Assembly (NCBI RefSeq): GCF_034092465.1
Contig: NZ_CP139303.1
Location: 434,001 to 498,000 of the forward strand
DNA from: Prochlorococcus sp. MIT 1223
GTDB lineage: Bacteria > Cyanobacteriota > Cyanobacteriia > PCC-6307 > Cyanobiaceae
Direction: 5' to 3'
Length of the DNA stretch: 64,000 nucleotides
Made by a program: the position numbers and the translations under genes. Under the pieces are notes generated by a model that did not search any database, was not told the DNA's origin, and saw only the letters and a list, made by a program, of their open reading frames with translations. Positions 3,270-33,174 of the stretch are shown here, piece by piece. Numbering within the stretch: the first letter of the stretch is position 1; every line of letters starts with the position of its first letter.

Positions 3270-3310
3270 CGGGGCGACAGGATTCGAACCTGCGACCTAG
3301 TGCTCCCAAA
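3270..3310 (-). repeat. att copy 1: tRNA-Pro 3' fragment (left end of E1)
   Basis: These 41 nt are identical to the intact tRNA-Pro(UGG) at 33102-33142, from the anticodon loop (TTTGGGA) to the 3' end. The match stops right after the anticodon loop. It is the displaced tRNA end left by integration and marks the outer left end of the island. Confidence 0.9.
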
Positions 3311-3465: not shown

Positions 3466-3684
3466 TTGACTGACAAATGGAAACCGACTCAAGATCAACA
3501 GGCAGGTGTCATTTCTGGAGTCAATGAGTTTATTACTGATGAACTGAACGAATTGCAGGAAGCATTGGATTGTCCAGATGAATTTATTTATGACTTCTTA
3601 GAAGAAATTAGAAATCGTTGGTCACCTGATAGTTGCCACTCCAAAGCAAGGCAACACAAAAGGGATAATCCAGATGCCTATTAA
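3466..3684 (+). CDS. Small acidic protein coupled to E1 recombinase
   Basis: 72 aa from TTG 3466. The protein is helical and acidic in the middle (ITDELNELQEALDCPDEFIYDFLEEIRNRW) with a basic C-terminus. Its end overlaps the start of the recombinase (ATG 3674) by 11 nt, so the two are probably translated together. Genes at this place in integrative elements are often recombination directionality or regulatory factors, but no helix-turn-helix is evident here. The start codon overlaps the core-like att remnant. Function is unassigned; it may also be a non-coding overlap. Confidence 0.45.
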   Translation: MTDKWKPTQDQQAGVISGVNEFITDELNELQEALDCPDEFIYDFLEEIRNRWSPDSCHSKARQHKRDNPDAY

Positions 3685-4927
3685 AAAAGAAACTGAGCCT
3701 TGGGTTATTAATTTCAGGCAACTTCTCAAAGCCTCGTTGCATCCTGGTGCTCAATGGTTTGTATCCAATAGCCGAGGGCAAATGCGCTTGGAGATCAAAG
3801 AAGGCGGTGCAAAACAATCTAGAATCCTTCCCTTTGAATGGAATCAAAAGGCCGCTGCCTCTGCTCTACCTAGGCTTCAGCAAATTTATAAGAACTACAT
3901 CAAGTCCAAAGGTCAAAAAACACTTGCTCAAGCTTGTGCTCTAACTGAAGTATCTAGTTCAAAGCATCAAGTGGATTGGGATGACTTAATAAGTCAATAC
4001 AGAAAATTTGTTCCTAATGCCAGTGATAAGACTTGGACCAAAAGTTATTTACCTGTTTTAAGAAAAGCAGGTTCATTAATGAGACAAGCAAAAAGCAAAC
4101 CACTTGATGGAGAGCATCTAATGATGAAAGCTCTTAATCAATGGCAACAAGGTAGTCGTTCACGACAAATCGCTCGACGTAGTCTTAAAGGCTTTCTTGA
4201 TTGGGCTGTTCTAAGAGGGAATTTAATTGCCGCATATGCTCCACCAGCACATATCCCAGAGACAAGAACACCCAAGCAAATAGGGTATGCAATTTCAGAT
4301 GAGCAGATTCTCTATTTACTTGAATCAATCCCCAAAGGAAGGCATCCAGCAGAAGTAGAAACTTATAACTCATGGAAATTTGCGATTCAGTTATGTACTG
4401 TTTATGGCTTAAGACCAGAAGAACTCAGGCATCTTTATGTTGAAGAAGGCCCTGAAGGTAAAGAGCTATGGACGTCTTATCAGAAAAGTAAAGGCGGTAC
4501 AAAAGGAAATAGAACAGAACCCAGGAAATTACATCCTTTATTTGTACGAACTCCTAAAGGACCAATTGATTGGCAATTGTTAAACAGGTTTGAGATAGAA
4601 GAAAAGCTTCCACCTCTAGGTCAAGAAGGCAAAGGTGGAGAAGCCTTAGGTACTTTTCTAAAACGTCGCAAATATTGGAGTGATTTAAAAATATGGATCA
4701 AGAAAAAAAAGATTAAACAAGTTTTAAAGCCTTATACATTTAGACATCGCTATGCCAAAGAGTCTCATGCGGCTGGATTCCCAATAGCAAATATCTGCAA
4801 AGCAATGGGACATTCCATCGAAGTTCACTTAGGCAACTATGCGAGATTCACCCCTGATGGGACGGCTGATCTTTACGCCAAAAGAAATAAAGCTGCTAAG
4901 GCTGCATGTAAAACAAAGGTCTTTTAA
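3674..4927 (+). CDS. Tyrosine recombinase (integrase) of E1
   Basis: Site-specific recombinase expected to integrate and excise E1 at tRNA-Pro. Length 417 aa. Catalytic residues visible: Arg247 in YGLRPEELRH, a Lys in the beta-hairpin KSKGGTKGNR (about 271-280), Arg357-His358 in PYTFRHRYA (the usual first His of HxxR is Tyr), His380 in MGHS, and nucleophile Tyr389 in GNYARF. The N-terminal half holds arm/core-binding domains and a GSRSRQI block (160-166) also present in the E3 recombinase. ATG 3674 overlaps the upstream ORF. The gene lies next to att copy 1 and points into the element. The deep divergence from phage integrases fits the tycheposon recombinases, but the subfamily needs a phylogeny. 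Confidence 0.92.
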   Translation: MPIKKETEPWVINFRQLLKASLHPGAQWFVSNSRGQMRLEIKEGGAKQSRILPFEWNQKAAASALPRLQQIYKNYIKSKGQKTLAQACALTEVSSSKHQVDWDDLISQYRKFVPNASDKTWTKSYLPVLRKAGSLMRQAKSKPLDGEHLMMKALNQWQQGSRSRQIARRSLKGFLDWAVLRGNLIAAYAPPAHIPETRTPKQIGYAISDEQILYLLESIPKGRHPAEVETYNSWKFAIQLCTVYGLRPEELRHLYVEEGPEGKELWTSYQKSKGGTKGNRTEPRKLHPLFVRTPKGPIDWQLLNRFEIEEKLPPLGQEGKGGEALGTFLKRRKYWSDLKIWIKKKKIKQVLKPYTFRHRYAKESHAAGFPIANICKAMGHSIEVHLGNYARFTPDGTADLYAKRNKAAKAACKTKVF

Positions 4928-9769: not shown

Positions 9770-10170
9770 AACGTACCCAATGCAATTTCAAGAACACTAG
9801 CTGTTATTTCTAATTTTGCTTGGATAGATAAGTGGGATTTATAGGACCTATGAGAGTTCTGAAACTTACTGGCGATGAGTTGCTTGATTCGTTATCTTTT
9901 TAGAAATCAGTCCCACCTGTCTGAGCAATGACAAAAGAGGTCTACGAAGCAGTACTTGAAGCATCAAAGAATGGTGAGCTGTGGGGCGTAAACAGAGTTC
10001 GTTGTTAATTTTATTTGGTTCGTTATTTTCTGATGAGATAGAAACAAAAGATAAAGATTGCAACTCGGAAATTCCCTCTGTAAACAGATTTAGTAAGTAA
10101 CCATCGTTTTTACTTAGAATTGCAAGAAAGTTTCTGCTTTCTGTAAAAGGAAGGGGCCTAAAATTTTTTG
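9770..10170. other. Intergenic region with short coding remnants
   Basis: No convincing gene. Two short plus-strand frames look like remnants: ATG 9850 reading MRVLKLTGDELLDSLSF then stop, and ATG 9928 reading MTKEVYEAVLEASKNGELWG then a few more codons. The minus-strand frame through here overlaps the ParA start and has a composition unlike a real protein. Probably degraded cargo upstream of the ParA operon. Confidence 0.35.
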
Positions 10171-11595
10171 ATGATAAGTTCCACTGCCAAAAAAGAATTA
10201 ATAAGTCAAATAACTCGCCTATGTGAGAATTGGAAGAGGGATAAGAATTTAAGAGATGAGGCAAACGAAGCTGAAGCAGAGCCTTTAGCTAGAAATCTAT
10301 TGCAAATACTAGGAATAACTCAGGAGAGAGTCTTCCCCCAATACAAATGCTCTAGCAATAAGAAAGTTGATTTAGCTGTCAAATTTCAACCATTAGGAGA
10401 CTCAGATAAGTTCACAAAGCCAGATCTAATTGTTGAAATCAAAAGACCTTCCTGGATCTTTTCTGAAGGCGAAGAGAAATATTCTCAAACAGTTTCTCAA
10501 TTACAGTCTTATCTTTCGGGAGAGAGGTGCAAATCCGTAAAGTATGGAATCATTTTTAATGGGTGCCAAATTCAACTTTTTAGAAAACATGGAATGCTTT
10601 CTTACCCAATTAGTTCAATATTGTCGTTGGACAAAGAGAATATAGATTTAACTATTGCCTACTTGGTGGAACATATAATGCAAGATAGTGATCTAAGAGG
10701 AACAATTCTTACTGTTTGGAACAATAAAGGAGGTGTTGGTAAAACAACCATTGCTCAGAGTCTGGCAATTCTATTAAGTGAGAAAATCTCTTTTGGTAAG
10801 AAAGAGAAGAATAAAATTCTTTTAATTGATTTTGACCATAACCAAGGAGATCTAACTGCAAATTGCAAAATGGAAAGAAGTGAAGGAGAGACAAAAAAAC
10901 TTTTAGACGATGACTATCAAAATAATTTGTCTAATGAAGGGATCATTAGGTCGCTTAAGTCATTCACGAATATTCCCAAGAAAGGGAGAAAACCACGCTT
11001 CCCTTTTGATATAAAAGTCCTAAGAGCTGACTCAGCATTAAGCAGAGCAAGTATTAGCTATATGAAAAATTTTGATGCAAAGGATAGGTTGCCTTTAAGA
11101 AAACTAAGCCTAAACCTATCAAAGTCATTCGATTACATAATTATCGATGCGCCTCCTAATTATGAACAAAGTATATTTTCACAAGAAGCCGTAAGTGCAG
11201 CTGACTGTATCCTTCCAATTGCTCTATTCCAAAATAGTAATTCAATCAGAAATTATGCTAATGCCATCTTTGATTACTTAAAACCAGCTCAAATAAAACG
11301 TGCCGATGGTGGGCCTTTTAGTTTAGGAATTTGGTTTAATCGATGGAGAACAACTTGGACTTCAACACCAACTAGTTCTTCTGTCTCTAAGCAAATTAAA
11401 GATGCTGAGAAGGCAGAAGAACGTATGGAACTTAAACGCATCTTTTATAAACCCAATACTCGTCAGTTAAGAAAAATAGATGAGACTGCTGACATAGCAA
11501 GATCAATTATGGATGCCAAAGGTTTGCCAGGTGTTGTTCGCTATATGAGAGCAAGAAATACTTTTGACTCTTTAGTTAAAGAGTTCTCTGATTAA
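10171..11595 (+). CDS. PD-(D/E)XK nuclease-like domain fused to ParA ATPase
   Basis: 474 aa from ATG 10171 (an in-frame TTG precedes it by one codon). Counting residues from that TTG, residues 30-170 resemble the N-terminal nuclease-like domain of type I restriction HsdR subunits: KVDLAV (Asp68), then KPDLIVEIKRP giving Asp86 and E90-x-K92. Residues 180-470 are a ParA/MinD ATPase: deviant Walker A KGGVGKTT (187-194), LLIDFDHNQGD, and Walker B DYIIIDAPPNYEQ. ParA proteins segregate replicons by moving on DNA with a ParB partner, and a ParB-like gene follows 2 bases downstream. The fusion is unusual and could couple DNA sensing or cutting to partition, or stabilise the excised element. Confidence 0.8.
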   Translation: MISSTAKKELISQITRLCENWKRDKNLRDEANEAEAEPLARNLLQILGITQERVFPQYKCSSNKKVDLAVKFQPLGDSDKFTKPDLIVEIKRPSWIFSEGEEKYSQTVSQLQSYLSGERCKSVKYGIIFNGCQIQLFRKHGMLSYPISSILSLDKENIDLTIAYLVEHIMQDSDLRGTILTVWNNKGGVGKTTIAQSLAILLSEKISFGKKEKNKILLIDFDHNQGDLTANCKMERSEGETKKLLDDDYQNNLSNEGIIRSLKSFTNIPKKGRKPRFPFDIKVLRADSALSRASISYMKNFDAKDRLPLRKLSLNLSKSFDYIIIDAPPNYEQSIFSQEAVSAADCILPIALFQNSNSIRNYANAIFDYLKPAQIKRADGGPFSLGIWFNRWRTTWTSTPTSSSVSKQIKDAEKAEERMELKRIFYKPNTRQLRKIDETADIARSIMDAKGLPGVVRYMRARNTFDSLVKEFSD

Positions 11596-11597
11596 TC

Positions 11598-12536
11598 ATG
11601 TCCCAATCTTCAATTGATTTAATTCGGATTCCGGTTAAGGATATTTTCACAGAGAATGATCCTGATATTGATGTAATTAAAGTTCTTGGGCTTTCCAAAA
11701 AATACCTTAAGAGTAAAGACTCTTTAAATTTTGTGCCTATGACTGTTGTCGCTGAGAGAGGAGGTAATTATCGACTTATCCAGGGGCATGATATTTTCCA
11801 TGCACTCGTTCAAGCAGGAAAAGAATGGGCGATAGCGCTAAGGATTAAAGAAGATACAGGGTCTAGCGACCAATGGAGATATGAACTTGATCTATCAACA
11901 ACTCAATTAAATATATGTAACTTAGATGCCAATGAATTTGAGCGTGCATTGGATTATTTCCAGACAACGATCAAGAAATTCGCAAAATTAAAGGTAGACA
12001 AACTAGTGTCAGATTTTGCAAATGACCCAACAAGAAAATACTGGTCAACTCTAGAAATACTTGTTGAAGCTAAATGTGGTATCACAAAAGGAAATCTGCC
12101 CTTACTAGAAAAGTATCTTTATGCCTCTCCAGATCTCTCAGAATTAAAGCCAATAACACCTATCAACATTAATCGTTCCTCCGAAGAGGATATTTTAGAT
12201 CAACTACAGCGATTAAAGATTGAACCCAAAGCAGGCAAATTAAGGAAAATCGATTCTGTTGCTACAGCCAGAGCAATCGTTGCAGATGATGATCGAATCT
12301 ATTGGTCTTTAAGTAAGCATCTTGTAAAAGCCAAAACTGGTATAACTACTCCGTTATGGCCACTGATTAAAGCTGGATTTTTCTTTGAACCAGCGCCAAC
12401 CCCCGTACCTAATAAATCTAAGTTTTTGTTGAACCAACAAACTCCTGCGAATTTAAGAATAGAAGCAAAATCAAGAAACCTTGACCCAACAGGGCTTCTT
12501 AAGCCTGCTCTAGTAGAGCTTTTAAGCTCTACTTAA
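11598..12536 (+). CDS. ParB-like protein with C-terminal SAP-like motif
   Basis: 312 aa. The N-terminal IRIPVKDIF, then VPMTVVAERGGNYRLIQGHDIFHALVQAG, follows the ParB/Srx N-domain pattern, but the usual GHRR is GHDI, so CTP or DNA binding may differ. The middle is helical. The last ~40 residues (TPANLRIEAKSRNLDPTGLLKPALVELL) resemble a SAP/Rho-N DNA-binding motif. It follows the ParA fusion by 2 bases, giving a parAB-like operon in an integrated element. Probably binds a centromere-like site; no clear parS is seen. Confidence 0.65.
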   Translation: MSQSSIDLIRIPVKDIFTENDPDIDVIKVLGLSKKYLKSKDSLNFVPMTVVAERGGNYRLIQGHDIFHALVQAGKEWAIALRIKEDTGSSDQWRYELDLSTTQLNICNLDANEFERALDYFQTTIKKFAKLKVDKLVSDFANDPTRKYWSTLEILVEAKCGITKGNLPLLEKYLYASPDLSELKPITPININRSSEEDILDQLQRLKIEPKAGKLRKIDSVATARAIVADDDRIYWSLSKHLVKAKTGITTPLWPLIKAGFFFEPAPTPVPNKSKFLLNQQTPANLRIEAKSRNLDPTGLLKPALVELLSST

Positions 12537-12574: not shown

Positions 12575-13675
12575 CTAAGTAGGAAAAGTCGCGTACTCAT
12601 ATCTAGAACGACCATGATTAACAAGTACTTTCCTGCGTTGAATTAATCCTTCTGAATACATTTCTGCTAAATAACGCCTTACTACTTCCTCTTCACTTGC
12701 TGGAGACAGGCCCATAGCAATCGATCGAGGATGACAATAATCACTAGTCTCCTTTAGATAATCGCTAATTCTTTCTCTTAACTTCTTACGCTTAGTAGGT
12801 AATAAATTATTTTCACCTACCTTGACTAGTTCAAAAGAATAATCCTCATCACTTCCTTGTAATTCCCATAGCGTATTGATCCTGCAATTCCTCTTTCCCA
12901 GACAGATTAGGCGAAACTGATCCTGCTTTTGAGGAACTCTTACGAGACCCCATATATCACTAATGGCATTACCGATTGTAGAAAGCCCCGCTATATCATG
13001 CGCTGTAATTGTTTGCCTCTCTTTCTTATCGATCGGTTGATTTAAATGAGTAGTAATAATTGCGCTGACCTTTGCCTTTGCAAACATTGAGCGGATCTTA
13101 TAAAGCTTCCTCGTAAATCCTGTATCTGTCACTTCACAATTATCAGAAGCAAGTCCTTTTGTTGCGCTATCAATGATGATTAATTGATAGATGTTCTCAT
13201 CGATTTTTTGTTGTAAACAGGTCAAATCGAGAGTGTTTTCAAGCCATGCAACATCACATAAACCATCAGGCAAACCCATCAACCGCAATTTGATTTCAGT
13301 ATCTTCTTGAGGTTCATCGCATTGAATCAGTAATACCTTTAGTTTTCTTGTTTGCAGTTCATTCAAAAAAAAGCTTCCCTTGCTAACCGCTTCAATCAAA
13401 CGCAGCAATAAAGCCGTTTTCCCAGAACCTTTTTCAGCCGCCAAAAGCAAAACTGCTCCTAAAGCAAGAAACTGATCCACTACCCAGACCCTTTTTCCTA
13501 CTGAGTCACCCCCTCTTAATGTTTTGATCTGAATTGAATTTGATTGAGCTGAAGTCAATCTTCTTCCTACTTTTTTCTCTTCTGCTATTAGCTGGCGATC
13601 TTGCTCTTCCTGCCATGCCTGTTCCTCTTCTTTGGAATCAGGTATAGGAACAGCGCCAAAATCTCGTAAGTCCAT
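12575..13675 (-). CDS. RepA-type AAA helicase (RecA fold)
   Basis: 366 aa. RecA-like ATPase: Walker A AAEKGSGKTALLL (about 79-91), Walker B LIIIDSATKGLA (mid-protein), and a conserved TTHLNQPID segment. It matches hexameric RepA/AAA_25 replication helicases of plasmids and integrative elements. The C-terminal region resembles a winged helix (SPASEEEVVRRYLAEMYSEGLIQRR). It probably unwinds the element's origin after excision. The gene follows the AlpA-like gene by 3 bases in a minus-strand operon of three genes that reads away from the right end of E1. Confidence 0.8.
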   Translation of the reverse strand: MDLRDFGAVPIPDSKEEEQAWQEEQDRQLIAEEKKVGRRLTSAQSNSIQIKTLRGGDSVGKRVWVVDQFLALGAVLLLAAEKGSGKTALLLRLIEAVSKGSFFLNELQTRKLKVLLIQCDEPQEDTEIKLRLMGLPDGLCDVAWLENTLDLTCLQQKIDENIYQLIIIDSATKGLASDNCEVTDTGFTRKLYKIRSMFAKAKVSAIITTHLNQPIDKKERQTITAHDIAGLSTIGNAISDIWGLVRVPQKQDQFRLICLGKRNCRINTLWELQGSDEDYSFELVKVGENNLLPTKRKKLRERISDYLKETSDYCHPRSIAMGLSPASEEEVVRRYLAEMYSEGLIQRRKVLVNHGRSRYEYATFPT

Positions 13676-13678
13676 TAC

Positions 13679-13939
13679 TCATACTCCCATCGATGAGAAA
13701 TCCTCTATTTCAAATGCAGCCTTTTCTGGGGCTGCAACTATGCGGCGAGATTGTTCAATCCTCCATTGATTGATTGATTCAATAGACCAACCAATCGGAC
13801 CAGATCTCCTACCAGTTAAATAAACCCAATGGGTTCCTACTTTTAATTCATCTGATGCCTTCAATTCCATCAGACGAGAACGTCCTATACCAAGAAGCTC
13901 AACAGCCTCCTCAGTAGAGACAAATTTTTTAGTTTGCAT
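13679..13939 (-). CDS. AlpA/excisionase-like DNA-binding protein
   Basis: 86 aa. FVSTEEAVELLGIGRSRLMELKASDEL forms an HTH_17-type helix-turn-helix, followed by a wing (GTHWVYLTGRRSGPIGW) and a helix SIESINQWR, which is the AlpA layout. AlpA proteins control excision or replication genes in prophages and islands. It lies between the 94-aa gene (11-nt overlap) and the helicase gene. It shares its fold and position beside a helicase with the AlpA-like gene of E3 at 19686, so this is a conserved element module. Confidence 0.75.
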   Translation of the reverse strand: MQTKKFVSTEEAVELLGIGRSRLMELKASDELKVGTHWVYLTGRRSGPIGWSIESINQWRIEQSRRIVAAPEKAAFEIEDFSSMGV

Positions 13940-14610: not shown

Positions 14611-14652
14611 CGGGGCGACAGGATTCGAACCTGCGACCTAGTGCTCCCAAAG
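14611..14652 (-). repeat. att copy 2: tRNA-Pro 3' fragment (E1/E2 junction)
   Basis: Identical to the 3' part of tRNA-Pro from the 3' end through the anticodon loop and one base beyond, then diverging (GGACGAGG). Marks the junction between E1 and E2. Confidence 0.9.
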
Positions 14653-14894: not shown

Positions 14895-15821
14895 TTGGTC
14901 GACATTCCAAAATGGCATCAATTTATGAGACCTCTTTTGCTGGTCCTTAAAGAGAGTGGGGAAATGTACCGCCACGATGCAATTGAAGCTGTCGTTAAAA
15001 AAGAACGTCTTACAGATGAACAGCTTGCAATTTTGCAAGAAAGCAATGGGAAATGTGTTGCGAAGGAACGAATTGGCTGGGCTTCTTCTTACTTGCGTGT
15101 CGCTGGTGCTCTTGTTGGCCCAAAACGTGGATATTTCGCCTTAGGACCTAATTCTACGCAGTTATTAAATCTTGAACGAGCAATAACTAAAAGTGATCTA
15201 AAAGGAATTCCTGAATACCAAAATCATCAGGCAAAGAATGCTAGGACACGTGCTCAAGGGCTAGAAGATTCTGATAGTGATGATTTAGAAGATGACACAC
15301 CTCAAGACTTAATCGATAGAGGAATTAAAAGATTGAGATCGCAATTGGTTGATGATCTTCTTGAACAAATTAAAAGTATTTCGCCAGCAGCATTTGAAAA
15401 TCTGATTTTGCAAGTTCTTGCAAAAATGGGATATGGAGGTGGCGACCCAAGGAGAATTCAAGGTGTGCCTAGAGGAAAAGATGGTGGAATTGATGGAACT
15501 ATTGATGAGGATAAGCTTGGTCTTGATCAAATTTATATCCAAGCGAAAAGATATTCAGACAATTCAGTAGGACGTCCAACGATCCAAAGTTTTGTTGGGG
15601 CAATGAGTGGAGGTGGTTGTAAAAAAGGTGTTTTCGTTACTAGTAGTGTTTTTACTTCTGAGGCAAAAGAATTTGCTAATGGTCTTAAAGATGTTCGTCT
15701 AGTTCTAATCGATGGAGTTGGCTTAGCAAAGCTAATGATCGAGCATTGTGTAGGCGTTCAAGTAAAAGAGACAATCCAAGTTGCAAGGCTCGACCAAGAC
15801 TTCTTTAATGGCGAAGATTAA
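14895..15821 (+). CDS. mrr: Mrr-type restriction endonuclease
   Basis: 308 aa, similar in length to E. coli Mrr (about 304). The N-terminal winged-helix Mrr_N domain starts IPKWHQFMRPLLLVL, aligning with the start of Mrr and supporting TTG 14895 over ATG 14925. The catalytic domain has the PD-(D/E)XK-like series SPAAFENLILQVLAKMGYGG, then GKDGGIDGTI (Asp) and IYIQAKRYS (QxK form of ExK, as in Mrr), then a helical end. Type IV enzymes of this family cut modified DNA and serve defence against phages. It overlaps the next gene by 14 nt. Good confidence in family; target modification unknown. Confidence 0.85.
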   Translation: MVDIPKWHQFMRPLLLVLKESGEMYRHDAIEAVVKKERLTDEQLAILQESNGKCVAKERIGWASSYLRVAGALVGPKRGYFALGPNSTQLLNLERAITKSDLKGIPEYQNHQAKNARTRAQGLEDSDSDDLEDDTPQDLIDRGIKRLRSQLVDDLLEQIKSISPAAFENLILQVLAKMGYGGGDPRRIQGVPRGKDGGIDGTIDEDKLGLDQIYIQAKRYSDNSVGRPTIQSFVGAMSGGGCKKGVFVTSSVFTSEAKEFANGLKDVRLVLIDGVGLAKLMIEHCVGVQVKETIQVARLDQDFFNGED

Positions 15822-17016: not shown

Positions 17017-18387
17017 ATGAAAGCTCGTTCAGAAGCGCCAGATTGGGTTCAAAGCATGAGGATCTTCCTTCGGGGGGAGGTTGGAGCAAACTGGCAGGTG
17101 ACAACGAAAGGCAGGAGAAGGGCTTGTCTTGGCGTGAGGTTTGATGATGGAACGAGAGTTTTCAAGAATCTTCCTGTCTTATGGGAACGGGCACAACAAG
17201 CAAAGATCCAAGAGTTGGTTCTTGAAGTACATGAATTAGTGGTCAAGAAAAAGATATGTGGATTAGATGAGGCAATTGATCGAATCAACAAAGCCAATAC
17301 TGAAGTTCCTAGTGCTGCAGATAGAGCAAACCCAATGCTTCTTCTTGCAGCCTGGGAAAAATACGAACACTACAAGGTCAAACAAAAAGGTGATGTCACG
17401 CAAGCGAGCTGGAATAAAGAGTATGGAGGAAGACCTAATACAAAAATCAATCCACCAAGGCCAAACGACAAAGGGAAAACATATGTAAGGTTTAAGCAGA
17501 TAGTGAAAACAGCGACAAATGCTAATGAGTTATTGATTCAAATCGGTGACTACGAAGACAAGAATAAAAAGCCCGAACCAATTAAGCCCTTAGAAGCTGG
17601 CAGTCGCAGCAGGCAAATCAGAGTTCAACATGTTGCAGCTTTCCTAAGATGGGGAACTTCTAAAAAATCAGGCTATTTACTAAATCCAGAGAATTGGTCT
17701 GCACCACCAAGAAATGCAATCGATGATTATGTAGGAGTCAAGTCTGCCAAGAAGAAGAAAGAGACGTCTAATCCAACAGTTGCAATAGAAGATGATGATC
17801 TAATGGCGCTATTAGGCTCACTGCCAATAGACATCGATAAGGATGAAAAAAAGCATCGATTACGAGACAGAGCAATGGAGTGGGACTTTGCTTTAAAACT
17901 CTCTATTTGCTATGGATTAAGGCCTGAAGAAGTACGTCATGAACATCTAACGATCAAAAAGAATGACAAAGAATATTTATTTTGTACTTACTGCAAAAAG
18001 TCTGGAGGAGGAATAACTAAGCCAAGAAGACTTTGGCCGCTCCATCCCGAATGGGAAGAAAAATGGCATTTATTGGAACGTGTTAAGAAGAGAGATCCTT
18101 TACCAAGAATGAAAGCTGGAGCAGGTGATGCATTTAGAAATTACCTACGATTTAATGAAGTCTGGAAAAAATTGAAATCAGATATAGGAGTGGTGCCATA
18201 TAGCTTTAGACATTCTTATAGCAAGCGAGCGCATCAAATTTATAAGTTAAGTGATACAGAAGTTGCAGCATTTATGGGTCATAGCGTTCCTGTGCATAAT
18301 TCCACCTATGCTCAGTGGAGCAATGAAGCCATGCTTGAAAGTTCGATGGAACGTGCCATCAAATTTAGAGATTTAACGAGTAAGTAG
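17017..18387 (+). CDS. Tyrosine recombinase (integrase) of E3
   Basis: 456 aa recombinase expected to act at tRNA-Pro. Catalytic set: Arg302 (YGLRPEEVRH), Lys in CTYCKKSGGG (about 327), Arg398-His399 (PYSFRHSYS), His422 (MGHS) and nucleophile Tyr431 (NSTYAQW). It shares GSRSRQI and YGLRPEE blocks with the E1 recombinase, so both belong to one family, yet they differ enough to expect different arm-site specificity, in line with the different arm repeats. It lies next to att copy 3 and is followed after 3 bases by the DUF3427/DUF3883 gene, so the two are co-expressed. Confidence 0.92.
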   Translation: MKARSEAPDWVQSMRIFLRGEVGANWQVTTKGRRRACLGVRFDDGTRVFKNLPVLWERAQQAKIQELVLEVHELVVKKKICGLDEAIDRINKANTEVPSAADRANPMLLLAAWEKYEHYKVKQKGDVTQASWNKEYGGRPNTKINPPRPNDKGKTYVRFKQIVKTATNANELLIQIGDYEDKNKKPEPIKPLEAGSRSRQIRVQHVAAFLRWGTSKKSGYLLNPENWSAPPRNAIDDYVGVKSAKKKKETSNPTVAIEDDDLMALLGSLPIDIDKDEKKHRLRDRAMEWDFALKLSICYGLRPEEVRHEHLTIKKNDKEYLFCTYCKKSGGGITKPRRLWPLHPEWEEKWHLLERVKKRDPLPRMKAGAGDAFRNYLRFNEVWKKLKSDIGVVPYSFRHSYSKRAHQIYKLSDTEVAAFMGHSVPVHNSTYAQWSNEAMLESSMERAIKFRDLTSK

Positions 18388-18390
18388 GTA

Positions 18391-19383
18391 ATGGAAAAGG
18401 AAAAAACTATATTCCCTAAAGAAAAGTTTGTTATTGGAGATCCTTATCAAAGAAAAGATATGGATGAAAAGATTGGTGAAACAAAGATAAATAATCGAAG
18501 TGGGTCTGGCGTCTTCTCTTTTAAAAATACCGTAGTTTTATTGGTGACTTTAGAACAAGATCTTACTGAAGAAGAGAACAGCTATGAAGACTTCTTTGAA
18601 TATCCTGAGTTTGTATGGTCAAGTCAAAAGAAAGGGCCATACAGCAAGCCAACTACACCTGTAATGAAAGGGATGCTGGAAAGTGGAGCAGAACTTTTCG
18701 TAAGGCAAAAAGCAAAAAATGCGAGTAAAACAAATCCATATCTTTATTGCGGTTCAGTCGATGCTTTATCGCATGGGAGGCCTCAAGGAGAAGAAAGTCC
18801 TTTTAAAGTTAAATTCCAATTATTAGCGGATATTCAAGGGATTAATAGTGAAGTAGATAATTTAATAACCTGGAAACCGATTAATTATAAAAACACCAAA
18901 GCTTCTTATATTATTTCTTCATTGGATAAGAAAAAGAAGAAAAATAAAAAGAGCTCAAGCACGTCTCAAGGCTATCAAGCAGATAAAGAAATAAGGAATG
19001 CCGTTGAAGATTACGCTATGAAGCTCGCTATTTCACACTATGAATCCAAAGGGCTAAAAGTAAAAGATGTCTCAAAGGAAAAGATTGGCTATGACCTCTC
19101 TTGTGACTCAAAGACCTTTAGTTTTGGAGTTGAAGTTAAAGGTACTCGAAGCGCTGGTTCTAAAGTCATTGTCACTGAAGGTGAGCTGAGAAAAGCAAAG
19201 GAAGCGAAAGTAGAGCTATTTGTCGTATCAATGATTGAAGTTAAATATCAACTTGAGAAGAAAAATATAGTTTGTTCCTCTGGCCATTGGAGCGTAATTT
19301 CACCATGGAAGCCTTTAGCAGAATCACTCAAACCTAAAACGTATGACTATGAACTACCAACTGTTGAGTGGAATGAAATTTAA
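18391..19383 (+). CDS. DUF3427-DUF3883 nuclease-like protein
   Basis: 330 aa. The N-terminal half (about 30-160) follows the DUF3427 pattern seen at the end of restriction-associated helicases: VVLLVTLEQ, FFEYPEFVWSSQKKGPYSKPTTP, ELFVRQKAKNASKTNPYLYCG. A Lys/Ser-rich linker follows near 185-200. The C-terminal part (about 203-300) looks like DUF3883: IRNAVEDYAMKLAISHYESKG, then GYDLSC (Asp) and FGVEVKGTR (E-x-K), a PD-(D/E)XK core. Both domains are linked with restriction or phage-defence systems. A stand-alone fusion beside a recombinase may protect the element or its host. No helicase or methylase partner is nearby. Confidence 0.65.
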   Translation: MEKEKTIFPKEKFVIGDPYQRKDMDEKIGETKINNRSGSGVFSFKNTVVLLVTLEQDLTEEENSYEDFFEYPEFVWSSQKKGPYSKPTTPVMKGMLESGAELFVRQKAKNASKTNPYLYCGSVDALSHGRPQGEESPFKVKFQLLADIQGINSEVDNLITWKPINYKNTKASYIISSLDKKKKKNKKSSSTSQGYQADKEIRNAVEDYAMKLAISHYESKGLKVKDVSKEKIGYDLSCDSKTFSFGVEVKGTRSAGSKVIVTEGELRKAKEAKVELFVVSMIEVKYQLEKKNIVCSSGHWSVISPWKPLAESLKPKTYDYELPTVEWNEI

Positions 19384-19685
19384 AGAACTGCGATGATCTA
19401 TTTAAAGAATAACTATTTTCATTAATTGATTCTTCTAGAATATTACTTTAGTGAGTCACAGACTGGATTTCTTGACTTATAGAAAGAGCTGTATATACTT
19501 GTAGACATATTCTGAAGGGGTATCAACTCACCTCTCAGTCTTACCCAAAGCAATTGACCAAGCCGTGCTTGGTGGCACAACTTTTGCAGAGGCTAACCAA
19601 GCCGTGCTTGGGGATTGTGAGTTGAATCAACGCCAGCCGTCCGTGACGTAGTTGAAGATCAAATAATTCTTTTAAAGCTTCAAAA
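19384..19685. promoter_or_regulatory. Putative replication origin/control region of E3
   Basis: Gene-free. Two copies of a 15-nt palindrome CCAAGCCGTGCTTGG lie at 19558-19572 and 19597-19611, 39 bases apart. They are enclosed by a larger inverted repeat, TCAACTCAC (19523-19531) and GTGAGTTGA (19617-19625). Such nested iterons directly upstream of an AlpA-like protein and a replication helicase suggest an origin or an operator of that operon. Confidence 0.5.
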
Positions 19686-19919
19686 ATGTCTACATCTAAA
19701 GGTGTCGAATGGCTCTCCACTTCTCGTGCTGCTCAAGCTCTTGGCGTACACCCGATCACCCTCAAAAGAAGGCGTGATGAGGGATACCTCAAGAATGGAA
19801 TTCACTTTAGAAAAACAGGAGAATCCAAAAACTCCCAATACATTTGGAATTTCAAGAAATGCCTTGAGGTCTTTGACTTCTGGAAAGCTCCCAGTCAAAA
19901 AATCAAGGAGGAAGCGTAA
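19686..19919 (+). CDS. AlpA/excisionase-like DNA-binding protein of E3
   Basis: 77 aa. EWLSTSRAAQALGVHPITLKRRRDEGYLKNGIHFRKTG is a helix-turn-helix of the HTH_17/AlpA type followed by a wing (SQYIWNF) and a last helix. Its stop TAA shares a base with the ATG of the VirE-type helicase (TAATG), so they form an operon. It mirrors E1, where an AlpA-like gene also sits beside the replication helicase. Probably binds the palindromes just upstream. Confidence 0.75.
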   Translation: MSTSKGVEWLSTSRAAQALGVHPITLKRRRDEGYLKNGIHFRKTGESKNSQYIWNFKKCLEVFDFWKAPSQKIKEEA

Positions 19920-21115
19920 TGTCAGATCTTATAAAATCAATTCCTGATGGATGGGAAATTGAAAAAGAAGGAACTAAAAGATCTTGCCGATTATCATCAG
20001 GTGATTTAGTCAACCTTCTTCTAGACGTTTTTTCTAAGAAACTAAAATGGAATAATTTAACTCTTGAACCAGAATATGAAAATGCATTATTAGATAATAA
20101 TATCCAAGATTATTTTCATATTTTCTTAAATCAAAAAGGCTGGGCGATCGGGAAAGCTGATGCTCAAGATGCCTTAATTTTTGCTGCCAAACAGAATTGT
20201 TATAACCCTATATGGGAATGGTTAGAGGGAATCGAAAACGACTCAAACTTCTATCAAGTCAACATCAACACTATTGCCACCGACTTCCTCGGAACCAATG
20301 ATTCCCTGTACGACAAGATGCTAAAAGCCTTCTTAATAGGAGCAGTATCTAGAGCAGCAGAAAGAGGTTGTAAATTCGACAACATGCTGGTACTTAAAGG
20401 TCCACAAGGGATTTTTAAAAGTTCTTTTTTTAAAGCTTTACTTCCAAATCCAAATTGGTTTTGTGATACCTGGGAACCCAACAGAAAAGATCTTTTTATG
20501 CATCTACAAACATGCTTTATCTATGAGCTTGCAGAGCTTGAGACATTAACGACTAAAAAGGCTGTAGGAGAAGTAAAAGGATTACTATCAAGTTCAATCG
20601 ACACCTTCAGACCACCTTATGGTCGCAATGTTATTAAGGCCCCACGACCAAGTGTGATGGTTGGGACAGTGAATGAAGATTGTTTTCTCAATGACTCAAC
20701 TGGTAGCAGAAGATTCTGGGTTGTTCCTTTACCTCAACTGGAAGGTCAAAAGATCGATATTCAAAAAGTAAAAGAAGAGCGTGAAACTATATGGAAGGCT
20801 GCAATTCTTGCTTGGAGGGCTGGAGAGAAACCCTATCTCACTGACGACGATCAAACAGAATCAAATAGCAAAAATAAACTCTTTGTTCAAGAAAACATCT
20901 TCCATGAACCTCTGAGGATCTGGACCAATAGTCAATCCAAGGATAGATTCTTTACAACAGACGAGGCAATTATCGAATCAGGTATCAAGGAAAGAGAGCA
21001 CATCAAACAATCTGACTTCAAGATGGCAGCAACAGCATTGAAAGGACTGGGATATTTTCAAGAAGAGAAACGAATCAATGGAATTAAAGCTCGATGGTGG
21101 TTTAAGCGAATGTAG
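19919..21115 (+). CDS. VirE-type (superfamily 3-like) replication helicase
   Basis: 398 aa. Matches the 'virulence-associated E' helicase family of phages and islands: Walker A GPQGIFKSS (161-169), Walker B FIYELAELE (200-208), a sensor segment VMVGTVNED (247-255) and TGSRRFWVV (261-269) with the Arg finger. The short C-terminal region resembles a winged helix. No primase domain is visible, so it may use the host primase. Such helicases start replication of satellites and prophages. The start overlaps the AlpA-like gene. The minus-strand membrane protein follows after about 95 bases. Confidence 0.85.
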   Translation: MSDLIKSIPDGWEIEKEGTKRSCRLSSGDLVNLLLDVFSKKLKWNNLTLEPEYENALLDNNIQDYFHIFLNQKGWAIGKADAQDALIFAAKQNCYNPIWEWLEGIENDSNFYQVNINTIATDFLGTNDSLYDKMLKAFLIGAVSRAAERGCKFDNMLVLKGPQGIFKSSFFKALLPNPNWFCDTWEPNRKDLFMHLQTCFIYELAELETLTTKKAVGEVKGLLSSSIDTFRPPYGRNVIKAPRPSVMVGTVNEDCFLNDSTGSRRFWVVPLPQLEGQKIDIQKVKEERETIWKAAILAWRAGEKPYLTDDDQTESNSKNKLFVQENIFHEPLRIWTNSQSKDRFFTTDEAIIESGIKEREHIKQSDFKMAATALKGLGYFQEEKRINGIKARWWFKRM

Positions 21116-33071: not shown

Positions 33072-33100
33072 TTCTTATTTTGAGACTCTTCAAAACCCAG

Positions 33101-33174
33101 TCGGGGCGACAGGATTCGAACCTGCGACCTAGTGCTCCCAAAGCACCCGCGCTACCAAGCTGCGCCACGCCCCG
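33101..33174 (-). tRNA. tRNA-Pro(UGG), intact; integration target
   Basis: Complete cloverleaf on the minus strand. Acceptor CGGGGCG/CGCCCCG, D arm GCGCAGCTTGGTAGCGC, anticodon stem GGTGC/GCACT with loop TTTGGGA (anticodon TGG), T arm GCAGG-TTCGAAT-CCTGT, discriminator A, no encoded CCA. Its last 41-44 nt are repeated three times to the left. The anticodon stem forms an inverted repeat around a 7-nt loop, the usual core layout of tyrosine-recombinase sites, so the crossover is probably in the anticodon loop. Confidence 0.97.

What the first reader, a model, noticed from the sequence alone, without database searches (positions are those of the whole stretch)
10171..12536. Nuclease-like domain fused to ParA, with a ParB-like/SAP partner, in an integrated element
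HsdR_N-like PD-(D/E)XK residues (Asp86, E90-x-K92) precede a full ParA ATPase; the next gene is ParB-like but has GHDI where GHRR is usual. Partition genes are unexpected in a chromosomally integrated element, and the nuclease fusion is more so. Options: stable inheritance of an excised form, plasmid interference (as in systems that sense and cut competing DNA), or phage defence.
Basis: partly seen in the sequence, partly recalled or inferred. Interest (0 to 1): 0.7.

Follow-up and report, generated by a model that had tools for sequence, protein, structure and literature searches.

The report
Nuclease–ParA fusion with ParB-like partner
A two-gene unit, a DNA-cutting enzyme joined to a ParA-type ATPase plus a DNA-binding ParB-like partner, is real and recurs across about one in nine cyanobacterial species, mostly in chromosomes; it looks like an undescribed DNA-interference system rather than ordinary plasmid partition, but nobody has tested what it does.

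Summary
The pair at 10171-12536 is real and is not a local oddity. An HsdR_N-type PD-(D/E)XK domain fused to a full ParA ATPase, followed by a ParB/Srx-fold partner, is a conserved two-gene operon: the partner is adjacent in 107 of 116 loci, and the fused gene occurs in 43 of 386 cyanobacterial species sampled. The active site is D67, E89, K91 and Q110. The partner's GHRR-type nucleotide motif is lost across the family; a ComEA/GspK-like helix-hairpin-helix region (weak match) and, in most members, a SAP/Rho_N domain follow.

The pair is mostly chromosomal (19 of 21 near-complete genomes). Nostoc plasmids that carry it also carry canonical ParA or ParA/ParB, so ordinary partition is unlikely. 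Synechococcus-type relatives add an N-terminal HEPN_Swt1 domain, a conflict-system hallmark. In the window it lies in an 11.3 kb element with its own integrase, the first of three elements arrayed at tRNA-Pro.

Best explanation: a ParA-gated nuclease that the partner directs to DNA, acting in interference with foreign or competing DNA (confidence 0.45). No matching family, defence model or paper was found. Function is inferred only.

The parts
10171..11595 (+). Fused nuclease-ParA protein (474 aa from ATG; a TTG at 10168 gives 475)
   Evidence: ORF; Pfam; 71-row alignment; model pLDDT 82.2, pTM 0.85
10171..10686 (+). HsdR_N-type PD-(D/E)XK domain, residues 1-172
   Evidence: HSDR_N_2 match; secondary-structure order
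10369..10443 (+). Active-site stretch: D67 (codon 10369-10371), E89 (10435-10437), K91 (10441-10443)
   Evidence: D 70/71, E 71/71, K 71/71
10498..10500 (+). Q110 codon, helix after the ExK strand (RecB/HsdR-type Q motif)
   Evidence: Q in 71/71
10687..11592 (+). ParA ATPase, residues 173-474; deviant Walker A KGGVGKTT with signature K186
   Evidence: Z 23.6 to H. pylori Soj, 250 residues, 3.0 A; K186 and K191 71/71
11598..12536 (+). Partner protein, 312 aa
   Evidence: adjacent in 107 of 116 non-redundant loci, usually overlapping by 4 bases
11598..11894 (+). Partner ParB/Srx-fold domain (residues 1-99), GHDI in place of GERR/GHRR
   Evidence: Z 11.0 PadC, 10.9 ParB; ParB_N in 52 of 69 aligned partners, best E 1.5e-5, sub-threshold in the single proteins shown
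11895..12395 (+). Two successive helical, ComEA/GspK-like helix-hairpin-helix regions (residues 100-180 and about 190-266)
   Evidence: weak: residues 100-180 Z 5.2-5.7 to ComEA and XcpVWX; HHH profile hits in the L173 partner; the window partner scores twice over this part of the family model
12399..12533 (+). SAP / Rho_N-like DNA-binding tail (residues 268-312)
   Evidence: Tho1 SAP Z 5.3, 0.9 A over 37 residues; Rho_N in 51 of 69 aligned partners, best E 1.5e-10
3271..3310 (+). att-like repeat (3' end of tRNA-Pro), left border of the element that carries the pair
14612..14651 (+). att-like repeat, right border of the element that carries the pair
3674..4927 (+). Tyrosine recombinase of the element; a homologue lies near the pair in G010 (L038:15260-16450)
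   Evidence: phrog_1 integrase E 1.6e-15; L038 ORFs
12575..13675 (-). AAA_25 (RepA/DnaB-like) ATPase of the same element
   Evidence: Pfam AAA_25 E 6.3e-15
13679..13939 (-). Small HTH_17 protein, excisionase-like
   Evidence: weak: HTH_17 E 0.0027, phrog_4691 excisionase E 0.023

Best explanation
The pair is a member of an undescribed cyanobacterial family of ParA-gated nucleases that most likely act in interference with foreign or competing DNA (plasmid, phage or rival element). Proposed steps: (1) shown by sequence: the fused protein keeps both a complete PD-(D/E)XK active site (D67, E89, K91, Q110) and a complete ParA nucleotide site with the signature lysine. (2) Inferred from known ParA proteins: ATP makes it dimerise through the ParA part and bind DNA non-specifically, which brings two nuclease domains together. 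(3) Inferred: the partner, a ParB/Srx-fold protein without the usual nucleotide motif and with DNA-binding-type domains, is the adaptor that contacts ParA and marks the DNA to be cut, or stimulates ATP hydrolysis and release so that resident DNA is spared. (4) Inferred: in the Synechococcus-type form a HEPN domain adds an RNA-cutting effector. In the window the unit is cargo of an 11.3 kb integrated element and could help it exclude competitors.
For: Catalytic residues invariant or nearly so: D 70/71, E, K and Q 71/71; nuclease and ParA parts about equally conserved. Operon with a co-evolving partner (107 of 116 loci; Mantel r 0.88, p 0.001, though shared descent also contributes). Patchy presence: 43 of 386 species with the window protein as query, 59 of 386 with the nuclease profile, which also picks up other architectures. 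Found on chromosomes, plasmids and an integrated element. HEPN_Swt1 fused N-terminally (Pfam E 1.6e-27 and 1.5e-25 in L040 and L039, with an RNKWAH motif; L041 is a close homologue of L040); Swt1/Abi2-type HEPN domains are described in R-M and defence contexts (PMC3710099). The Nostoc plasmids also carry canonical ParA or ParA/ParB, so partition is probably already provided. Three related co-resident Nostoc plasmids carry divergent versions (two are 53%/58% identical while backbone proteins are 92-97%).
Against: No functional data. No defence-gene enrichment was evident among 126 neighbouring genes, with no control set. No PADLOC model covers it; only mad2 over the HsdR_N-like part. No fast-evolving sensor domain: the partner is more conserved than the enzyme. 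The gene tree largely follows host orders (18 changes, minimum 10, shuffled 31), more than expected of a rapidly exchanged defence gene. Housekeeping-type genes often lie nearby.
Confidence: 0.45

Rival explanations
1. Stable-inheritance module: an unusual ParA/ParB-type system that positions or segregates the excised element or plasmid; the nuclease domain resolves entangled copies or serves as a DNA-binding domain.
For: Gene order and folds are those of parA-parB. Co-resident related plasmids carry divergent versions, as incompatibility determinants do. Pseudanabaena plasmid ABRG53g (12.6 kb) has a divergent fused gene as its only annotated ParA-like gene. The window element has an AAA_25 RepA/DnaB-like gene, so an excised replicating form is plausible.
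Against: Chromosomal in 19 of 21 near-complete genomes, with few integrases among the sampled neighbours. The plasmids with the main type also carry canonical ParA or ParA/ParB. No shared non-HIP1 motif around 105 operons that could serve as a common site, and no iterons in the window. The ParB nucleotide motif is lost. Invariant nuclease residues are unexplained.
Confidence: 0.25
2. Resident chromosomal function in DNA maintenance (for example repair, copy-number control or segregation in polyploid cells), recruited onto some mobile elements.
For: Chromosomal, often among housekeeping-type genes; tree follows host orders more than chance; the partner's DNA-binding region is the most conserved part.
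Against: Present in only about 11% of species by the window-protein search, no conserved neighbour, truncated copies exist, carried by plasmids and an integrated element, HEPN fusion.
Confidence: 0.17
3. Toxin-antitoxin-like addiction pair: the nuclease fusion is the toxin and the partner the antitoxin, stabilising elements by killing cells that lose them.
For: Tight two-gene operon, often overlapping by 4 bases; a HEPN toxin paired with a ParA/Soj ATPase has been proposed as TA (PMC3710099).
Against: Six genomes (G488, G568, G623, G728, G646, G667) have the fused gene but no partner at E 1e-5 anywhere in the genome; the intact solo genes seen keep D, E and K (L044, L075, L076). The partner is a multi-domain DNA binder, and the fused protein is larger than typical toxins.
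Confidence: 0.13

Closest known systems
ParABS partition systems (Soj/Spo0J, plasmid ParA/ParB)
   Same: ParA fold with deviant Walker A and signature lysine (Z about 23 to Soj and ParA); downstream partner with a ParB/Srx-fold N-domain (Z about 11); parA-parB gene order.
   Different: Nuclease domain at the ParA N-terminus; partner lacks the CTP motif and has HhH-like plus SAP/Rho_N domains; no centromere found; mostly chromosomal, and on Nostoc plasmids additional to canonical ParA or ParA/ParB.
HSDR_N / HSDR_N_2 (type I restriction R-subunit N-terminal nuclease)
   Same: Sequence profile match, D...ExK...Q residues, alpha-beta-beta-beta-alpha-beta order.
   Different: No helicase motor in the protein and no recurrent modification or specificity gene beside it; fused to ParA.
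ParB/Srx proteins outside segregation, such as orphan ParB-fold proteins (PMC12704722) and GmrSD or DndB-type ParB domains (PMC12839542)
   Same: ParB/Srx fold used outside classical segregation, with lineage-specific domain fusions.
   Different: The partners examined singly fall below the PF02195 curated cut-off that the PNAS survey used, so members of this kind would have been missed; an HhH-SAP tail or a nuclease-ParA neighbour is not mentioned in the passages read from those papers.
HEPN (MAE_18760) with ParA/Soj ATPase dyad, and Swt1/Abi2 HEPN-AAA+ fusions in R-M systems (PMC3710099)
   Same: HEPN nuclease linked to a ParA-type or other P-loop ATPase; Synechococcus-type relatives here carry HEPN_Swt1.
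   Different: HEPN is only an accessory in one small clade; the constant core is PD-(D/E)XK-ParA plus the ParB-like partner.
Wadjet/MksBEFG plasmid interference (PMC10123090, listed, not read)
   Same: Proposed outcome: ATPase-controlled nuclease acting on foreign DNA.
   Different: SMC motor and a different nuclease (own knowledge); no shared components recognised here.

Membership tests
PD-(D/E)XK nuclease (HSDR_N_2, PF13588) | Profile match above the curated cut-off (25 bits) | tested here: not met
   Window protein 19.6 bits. Family: 61 of 71 at E<=0.01, best 1.9e-8; L172 36.8 bits passes.
PD-(D/E)XK nuclease (HSDR_N_2, PF13588) | Catalytic D, E-x-K and Q conserved | tested here: met
   D67 70/71, E89, K91 and Q110 71/71.
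PD-(D/E)XK nuclease (HSDR_N_2, PF13588) | Core fold | tested here: inconclusive
   Secondary-structure order fits; the fold search was filled by ParA matches and did not test this domain.
PD-(D/E)XK nuclease (HSDR_N_2, PF13588) | Nuclease activity | not testable with these tools
   Needs purified protein.
ParA/MinD ATPases | Deviant Walker A with signature lysine, Walker A' and Walker B | tested here: met
   K186, K191, D220, D222 and D326 invariant.
ParA/MinD ATPases | ParA fold | tested here: met
   Z 23.6 to 6iub (Soj), 250 residues, 3.0 A.
ParB proteins | ParB/Srx N-domain fold | tested here: met
   Z 11.0 to 6ryk (PadC), 91 residues, 2.5 A; 10.9 to 7bnk (ParB).
ParB proteins | CTP-binding GERR/GHRR-type motif | tested here: not met
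   GHDI in the window; N-[SHAT]-F-[IV] in the family.
ParB proteins | Central HTH and C-terminal dimerisation domain | tested here: inconclusive
   The model shows helical ComEA/GspK-like regions and a SAP tail instead; low-confidence matches.
ParABS partition system | Centromere-like repeats next to the operon | tested here: inconclusive
   No repeats beyond chance-like pairs in the window; the only widely shared motif around 105 operons is HIP1; some loci have local repeats in their flanks.
ParABS partition system | Serves as the partition system of its replicon | tested here: inconclusive
   Mostly chromosomal; Nostoc plasmids carry further ParA or ParA/ParB, but ABRG53g has no other annotated ParA-like gene.
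Known anti-phage defence systems (PADLOC 2023) | Match over most of a defence-protein model | tested here: not met
   Only mad2 over residues 33-140 (E 6e-7) and a weak AriA match.
Toxin-antitoxin pair | Toxin not found without antitoxin | tested here: not met
   Six genomes with the fused gene but no partner at E<=1e-5.
Tycheposon (integrated element) | Tyrosine recombinase and tRNA-derived borders | tested here: met
   Recombinase 3674-4927; 40-bp tRNA-Pro repeats at 3271 and 14612.
Tycheposon (integrated element) | Other criteria of the original description | not tested
   The original paper did not come up in the library; only a citing paper was read.

The most novel reading that the evidence does not exclude
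A new class of DNA-interference system in which a ParA switch, rather than a helicase or SMC motor, gates a restriction-type nuclease, with a ParB-fold adaptor that has lost the usual nucleotide motif and tells resident from foreign DNA; widespread in cyanobacterial chromosomes, with several diverged clades and a HEPN-armed form.
Probability: 0.3. Interest if true: 0.88.

Novelty: new variant of a known kind. Interest (0 to 1): 0.64.

Why it matters
If it is a ParA-gated nuclease, DNA positioning and DNA destruction are combined in one protein, a mechanism for which no precedent was found in the searches made here. It would be a defence or element-competition system present in roughly one in nine cyanobacterial species, including many Nostoc and other filamentous groups, and relevant to why some cyanobacteria resist plasmids and phages. 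The invariant active site and signature lysine make the hypothesis directly testable with two point mutants.

Tried and rejected
Single-protein pattern scans of genome and viral contigs found nothing; the nuclease-domain profile A3 worked. Phage records: no match to the fused protein, the nuclease domain or the element DNA. The window partner alone against plasmids: none. Profile search of PDB sequences with the nuclease domain gave only a chance excisionase match; with the partner, weak Noc matches (E 0.05-0.15). Six literature searches for a ParA-nuclease fusion or this operon found no description; a seventh, on tycheposons, was for context. Asp86 as catalytic Asp: rejected. Ordinary plasmid partition: judged unlikely. 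Defence-island linkage: not seen. Own genome has no PF02195 ParB. A paper on ParB/Srx nucleases in plasmid conflict (PMC4241021) was not held.

Full report
WHAT IS THERE. The ORF at 10168/10171-11595 encodes a 474-aa protein (ATG numbering used here). Pfam finds a ParA ATPase (AAA_31, E 1.6e-17) and a sub-threshold HSDR_N_2 match at residues 61-138 (19.6 bits, cut-off 25). The next ORF, 11598-12536, encodes 312 aa with only a very weak SAP match. PADLOC sees only the HsdR_N-like part (mad2) and a weak AriA match.

IT IS A CONSERVED FAMILY. tblastn against plasmids found full-length relatives on two Nostoc sp. UHCC 0870 plasmids, each followed by a 'Rho termination factor N-terminal' protein similar to the window partner. 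Genome searches found the fused gene in 6 of 399 genomes of the order and 43 of 386 of the phylum at E 1e-15. A nuclease-domain profile scan of GTDB contigs gave 94 relatives, of which the 80 kept all carry cyanobacterial names, and one IMG/VR contig. Over 116 non-redundant loci the nuclease is fused to ParA in all but a few damaged or divergent copies, and the partner is adjacent in 107, most often overlapping by 4 bases. No other gene family recurs in more than 18 loci. This is a stand-alone two-gene unit. The profile scan used a short peptide pattern, so restriction to cyanobacteria is suggested, not proven.

ACTIVE SITES. In 71 aligned proteins D67 is conserved in 70 and E89, K91 and Q110 in all; ParA K186, K191, D220 and D326 are invariant. 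In the separate 31-row set one natural variant, L072, has lost both the Asp and the Lys. The predicted model (pLDDT 82, pTM 0.85) orders residues 33-140 as helix, three strands, helix, strands, with D67 in strand 2, E89 in strand 3 and K91 just after it. The ParA part matches Soj and ParA at Z about 23. Pfam HSDR_N_2 is matched by 61 of 71, and a protein of a related clade passes the cut-off at 36.8 bits.

THE PARTNER. Its model places residues 3-99 in the ParB/Srx fold (Z 11.0 PadC, 10.9 ParB), 100-180 near ComEA/GspK-type helix-hairpin-helix domains (Z 5.2-5.7, weak), and 275-312 on a SAP domain (Z 5.3, 0.9 A). ParB_N is matched at E<=0.01 by 52 of 69 aligned partners and Rho_N by 51; single examples stay below the curated cut-offs. 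The nucleotide motif is gone: GHDI in the window, N-[SHAT]-F-[IV] elsewhere. A PNAS 2025 survey of the ParB fold used PF02195 at its curated cut-off (PMC12704722), which the partners examined singly do not pass.

DIVERGENT CLADES. More distant relatives with the same layout exist. One clade on plasmids and chromosomes (L166-L168, L170, L171, L175, L183) has Walker A KGGV(A/S)K and partners of about 135-185 aa. Another (L172, L176-L179, L182) has KGGVGK and partners of about 236-307 aa. In three Synechococcus-type relatives the fused protein is about 670-740 aa: L040 and L039 carry an extra N-terminal HEPN_Swt1 domain (E 1.6e-27 and 1.5e-25) with an RNKWAH motif, and L041 is a close homologue. 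Six genomes have the fused gene without any detectable partner.

WHERE IT LIVES. Of 21 genomes with at most 10 contigs that carry the gene, 19 have it on contigs of 1.7 Mb or more and one (G441) on plasmids; the size of the contig in G539 was not checked. The plasmid unnamed4 that carries it has ParM and two canonical ParA/ParB pairs, unnamed9 has ParM and a canonical ParA, and unnamed10, with a divergent-clade pair, a canonical ParA/ParB. The unnamed4 and unnamed9 copies differ (53% and 58% identity) while the surrounding backbone proteins are 92-97% identical. A 12.6 kb Pseudanabaena plasmid has a divergent copy as its only annotated ParA-like gene, so a partition-like role for that clade is not excluded. 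The gene tree clusters by host order but not perfectly (18 changes, minimum 10, shuffled mean 31; 'quick' tree, LG+G4), and the two main-type Nostoc plasmid copies nest among contigs of other Nostocales.

THE WINDOW ELEMENT. The 3' end of tRNA-Pro (33100-33174, minus strand) is repeated exactly at 3271, 14612, 16808 and 33103, four copies in the whole genome. The pair lies in the first of three tandem elements, 11.3 kb, with a tyrosine recombinase, an AAA_25 ATPase and a small HTH protein. In G010 the pair (64% and 72% identical) again lies near a homologous recombinase. This fits the tycheposon description as quoted in PMC10872708; the original paper was not available. The organism looks like Prochlorococcus or a near relative (1.80 Mb, low G+C); that is my inference.

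HOW IT PROBABLY WORKS. Shown: both active sites are strongly conserved, the two genes travel together, and their divergence is correlated (Mantel r 0.88; shared ancestry contributes). Inferred: ATP-dependent ParA dimerisation on DNA couples two nuclease domains, with the partner as targeting or release factor. The patchy distribution, the HEPN fusion and the co-occurrence with true partition genes favour a role in DNA conflict. Points against: no defence-gene neighbours stood out, no rapidly evolving sensor region exists, and the tree is rather host-like. Partition, resident DNA maintenance and addiction remain as rivals at 0.25, 0.17 and 0.13.

NOVELTY. Six literature searches found no description of this fusion or operon. 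The closest published ideas are the HEPN-ParA/Soj dyad and Swt1/Abi2 HEPN fusions (PMC3710099). Most subscription papers and all bioRxiv preprints were not searchable, so prior mention cannot be excluded. Each domain is known; the stable combination, its spread and its divergence into clades appear undescribed.

Noticed in passing
window 3271, 14612, 16808, 33103: Four exact 40-bp copies of the tRNA-Pro 3' end mark three tandem integrated elements (11.3, 2.2 and 16.3 kb); the tRNA gene lies at the far right end.
   Followed up: yes
window 14895-15821: The 2.2 kb middle element carries an Mrr-type type IV restriction enzyme (PADLOC mREase_IV E 9e-71).
   Followed up: no
window 17017-21115: The third element has its own recombinase-like gene, a DUF3883/NOV_C protein (18391-19383) and a VapE-like helicase (19919-21115).
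   Followed up: no
L002/L003/L167 (Nostoc sp. UHCC 0870 plasmids unnamed4, 9, 10): Three related co-resident plasmids each carry a different version of the nuclease-ParA cassette; in two of them (L002, L003) it lies on opposite sides of a near-identical small integrase.
   Followed up: partly
L039:8781-11003, L040:10812-12824, L041:11622-13688: Longer fused proteins; L039 and L040 carry an N-terminal HEPN_Swt1 domain, and L041 is a close homologue of L040.
   Followed up: partly
L184:3947-5401, L076:9604-11010, L075:9389-10789: Solo fused genes without a detectable partner anywhere in the genome, in two genera of one family (f19).
   Followed up: partly
L157 (IMGVR_UViG_3300009787_000008, 58 kb): The only viral-collection contig with the pair; whether it is truly viral was not checked.
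   Followed up: no
L180, L181, L186: About 660-aa proteins with a related HsdR_N-like N-terminal domain but no ParA Walker A motif; a relative of the nuclease domain in another architecture.
   Followed up: no
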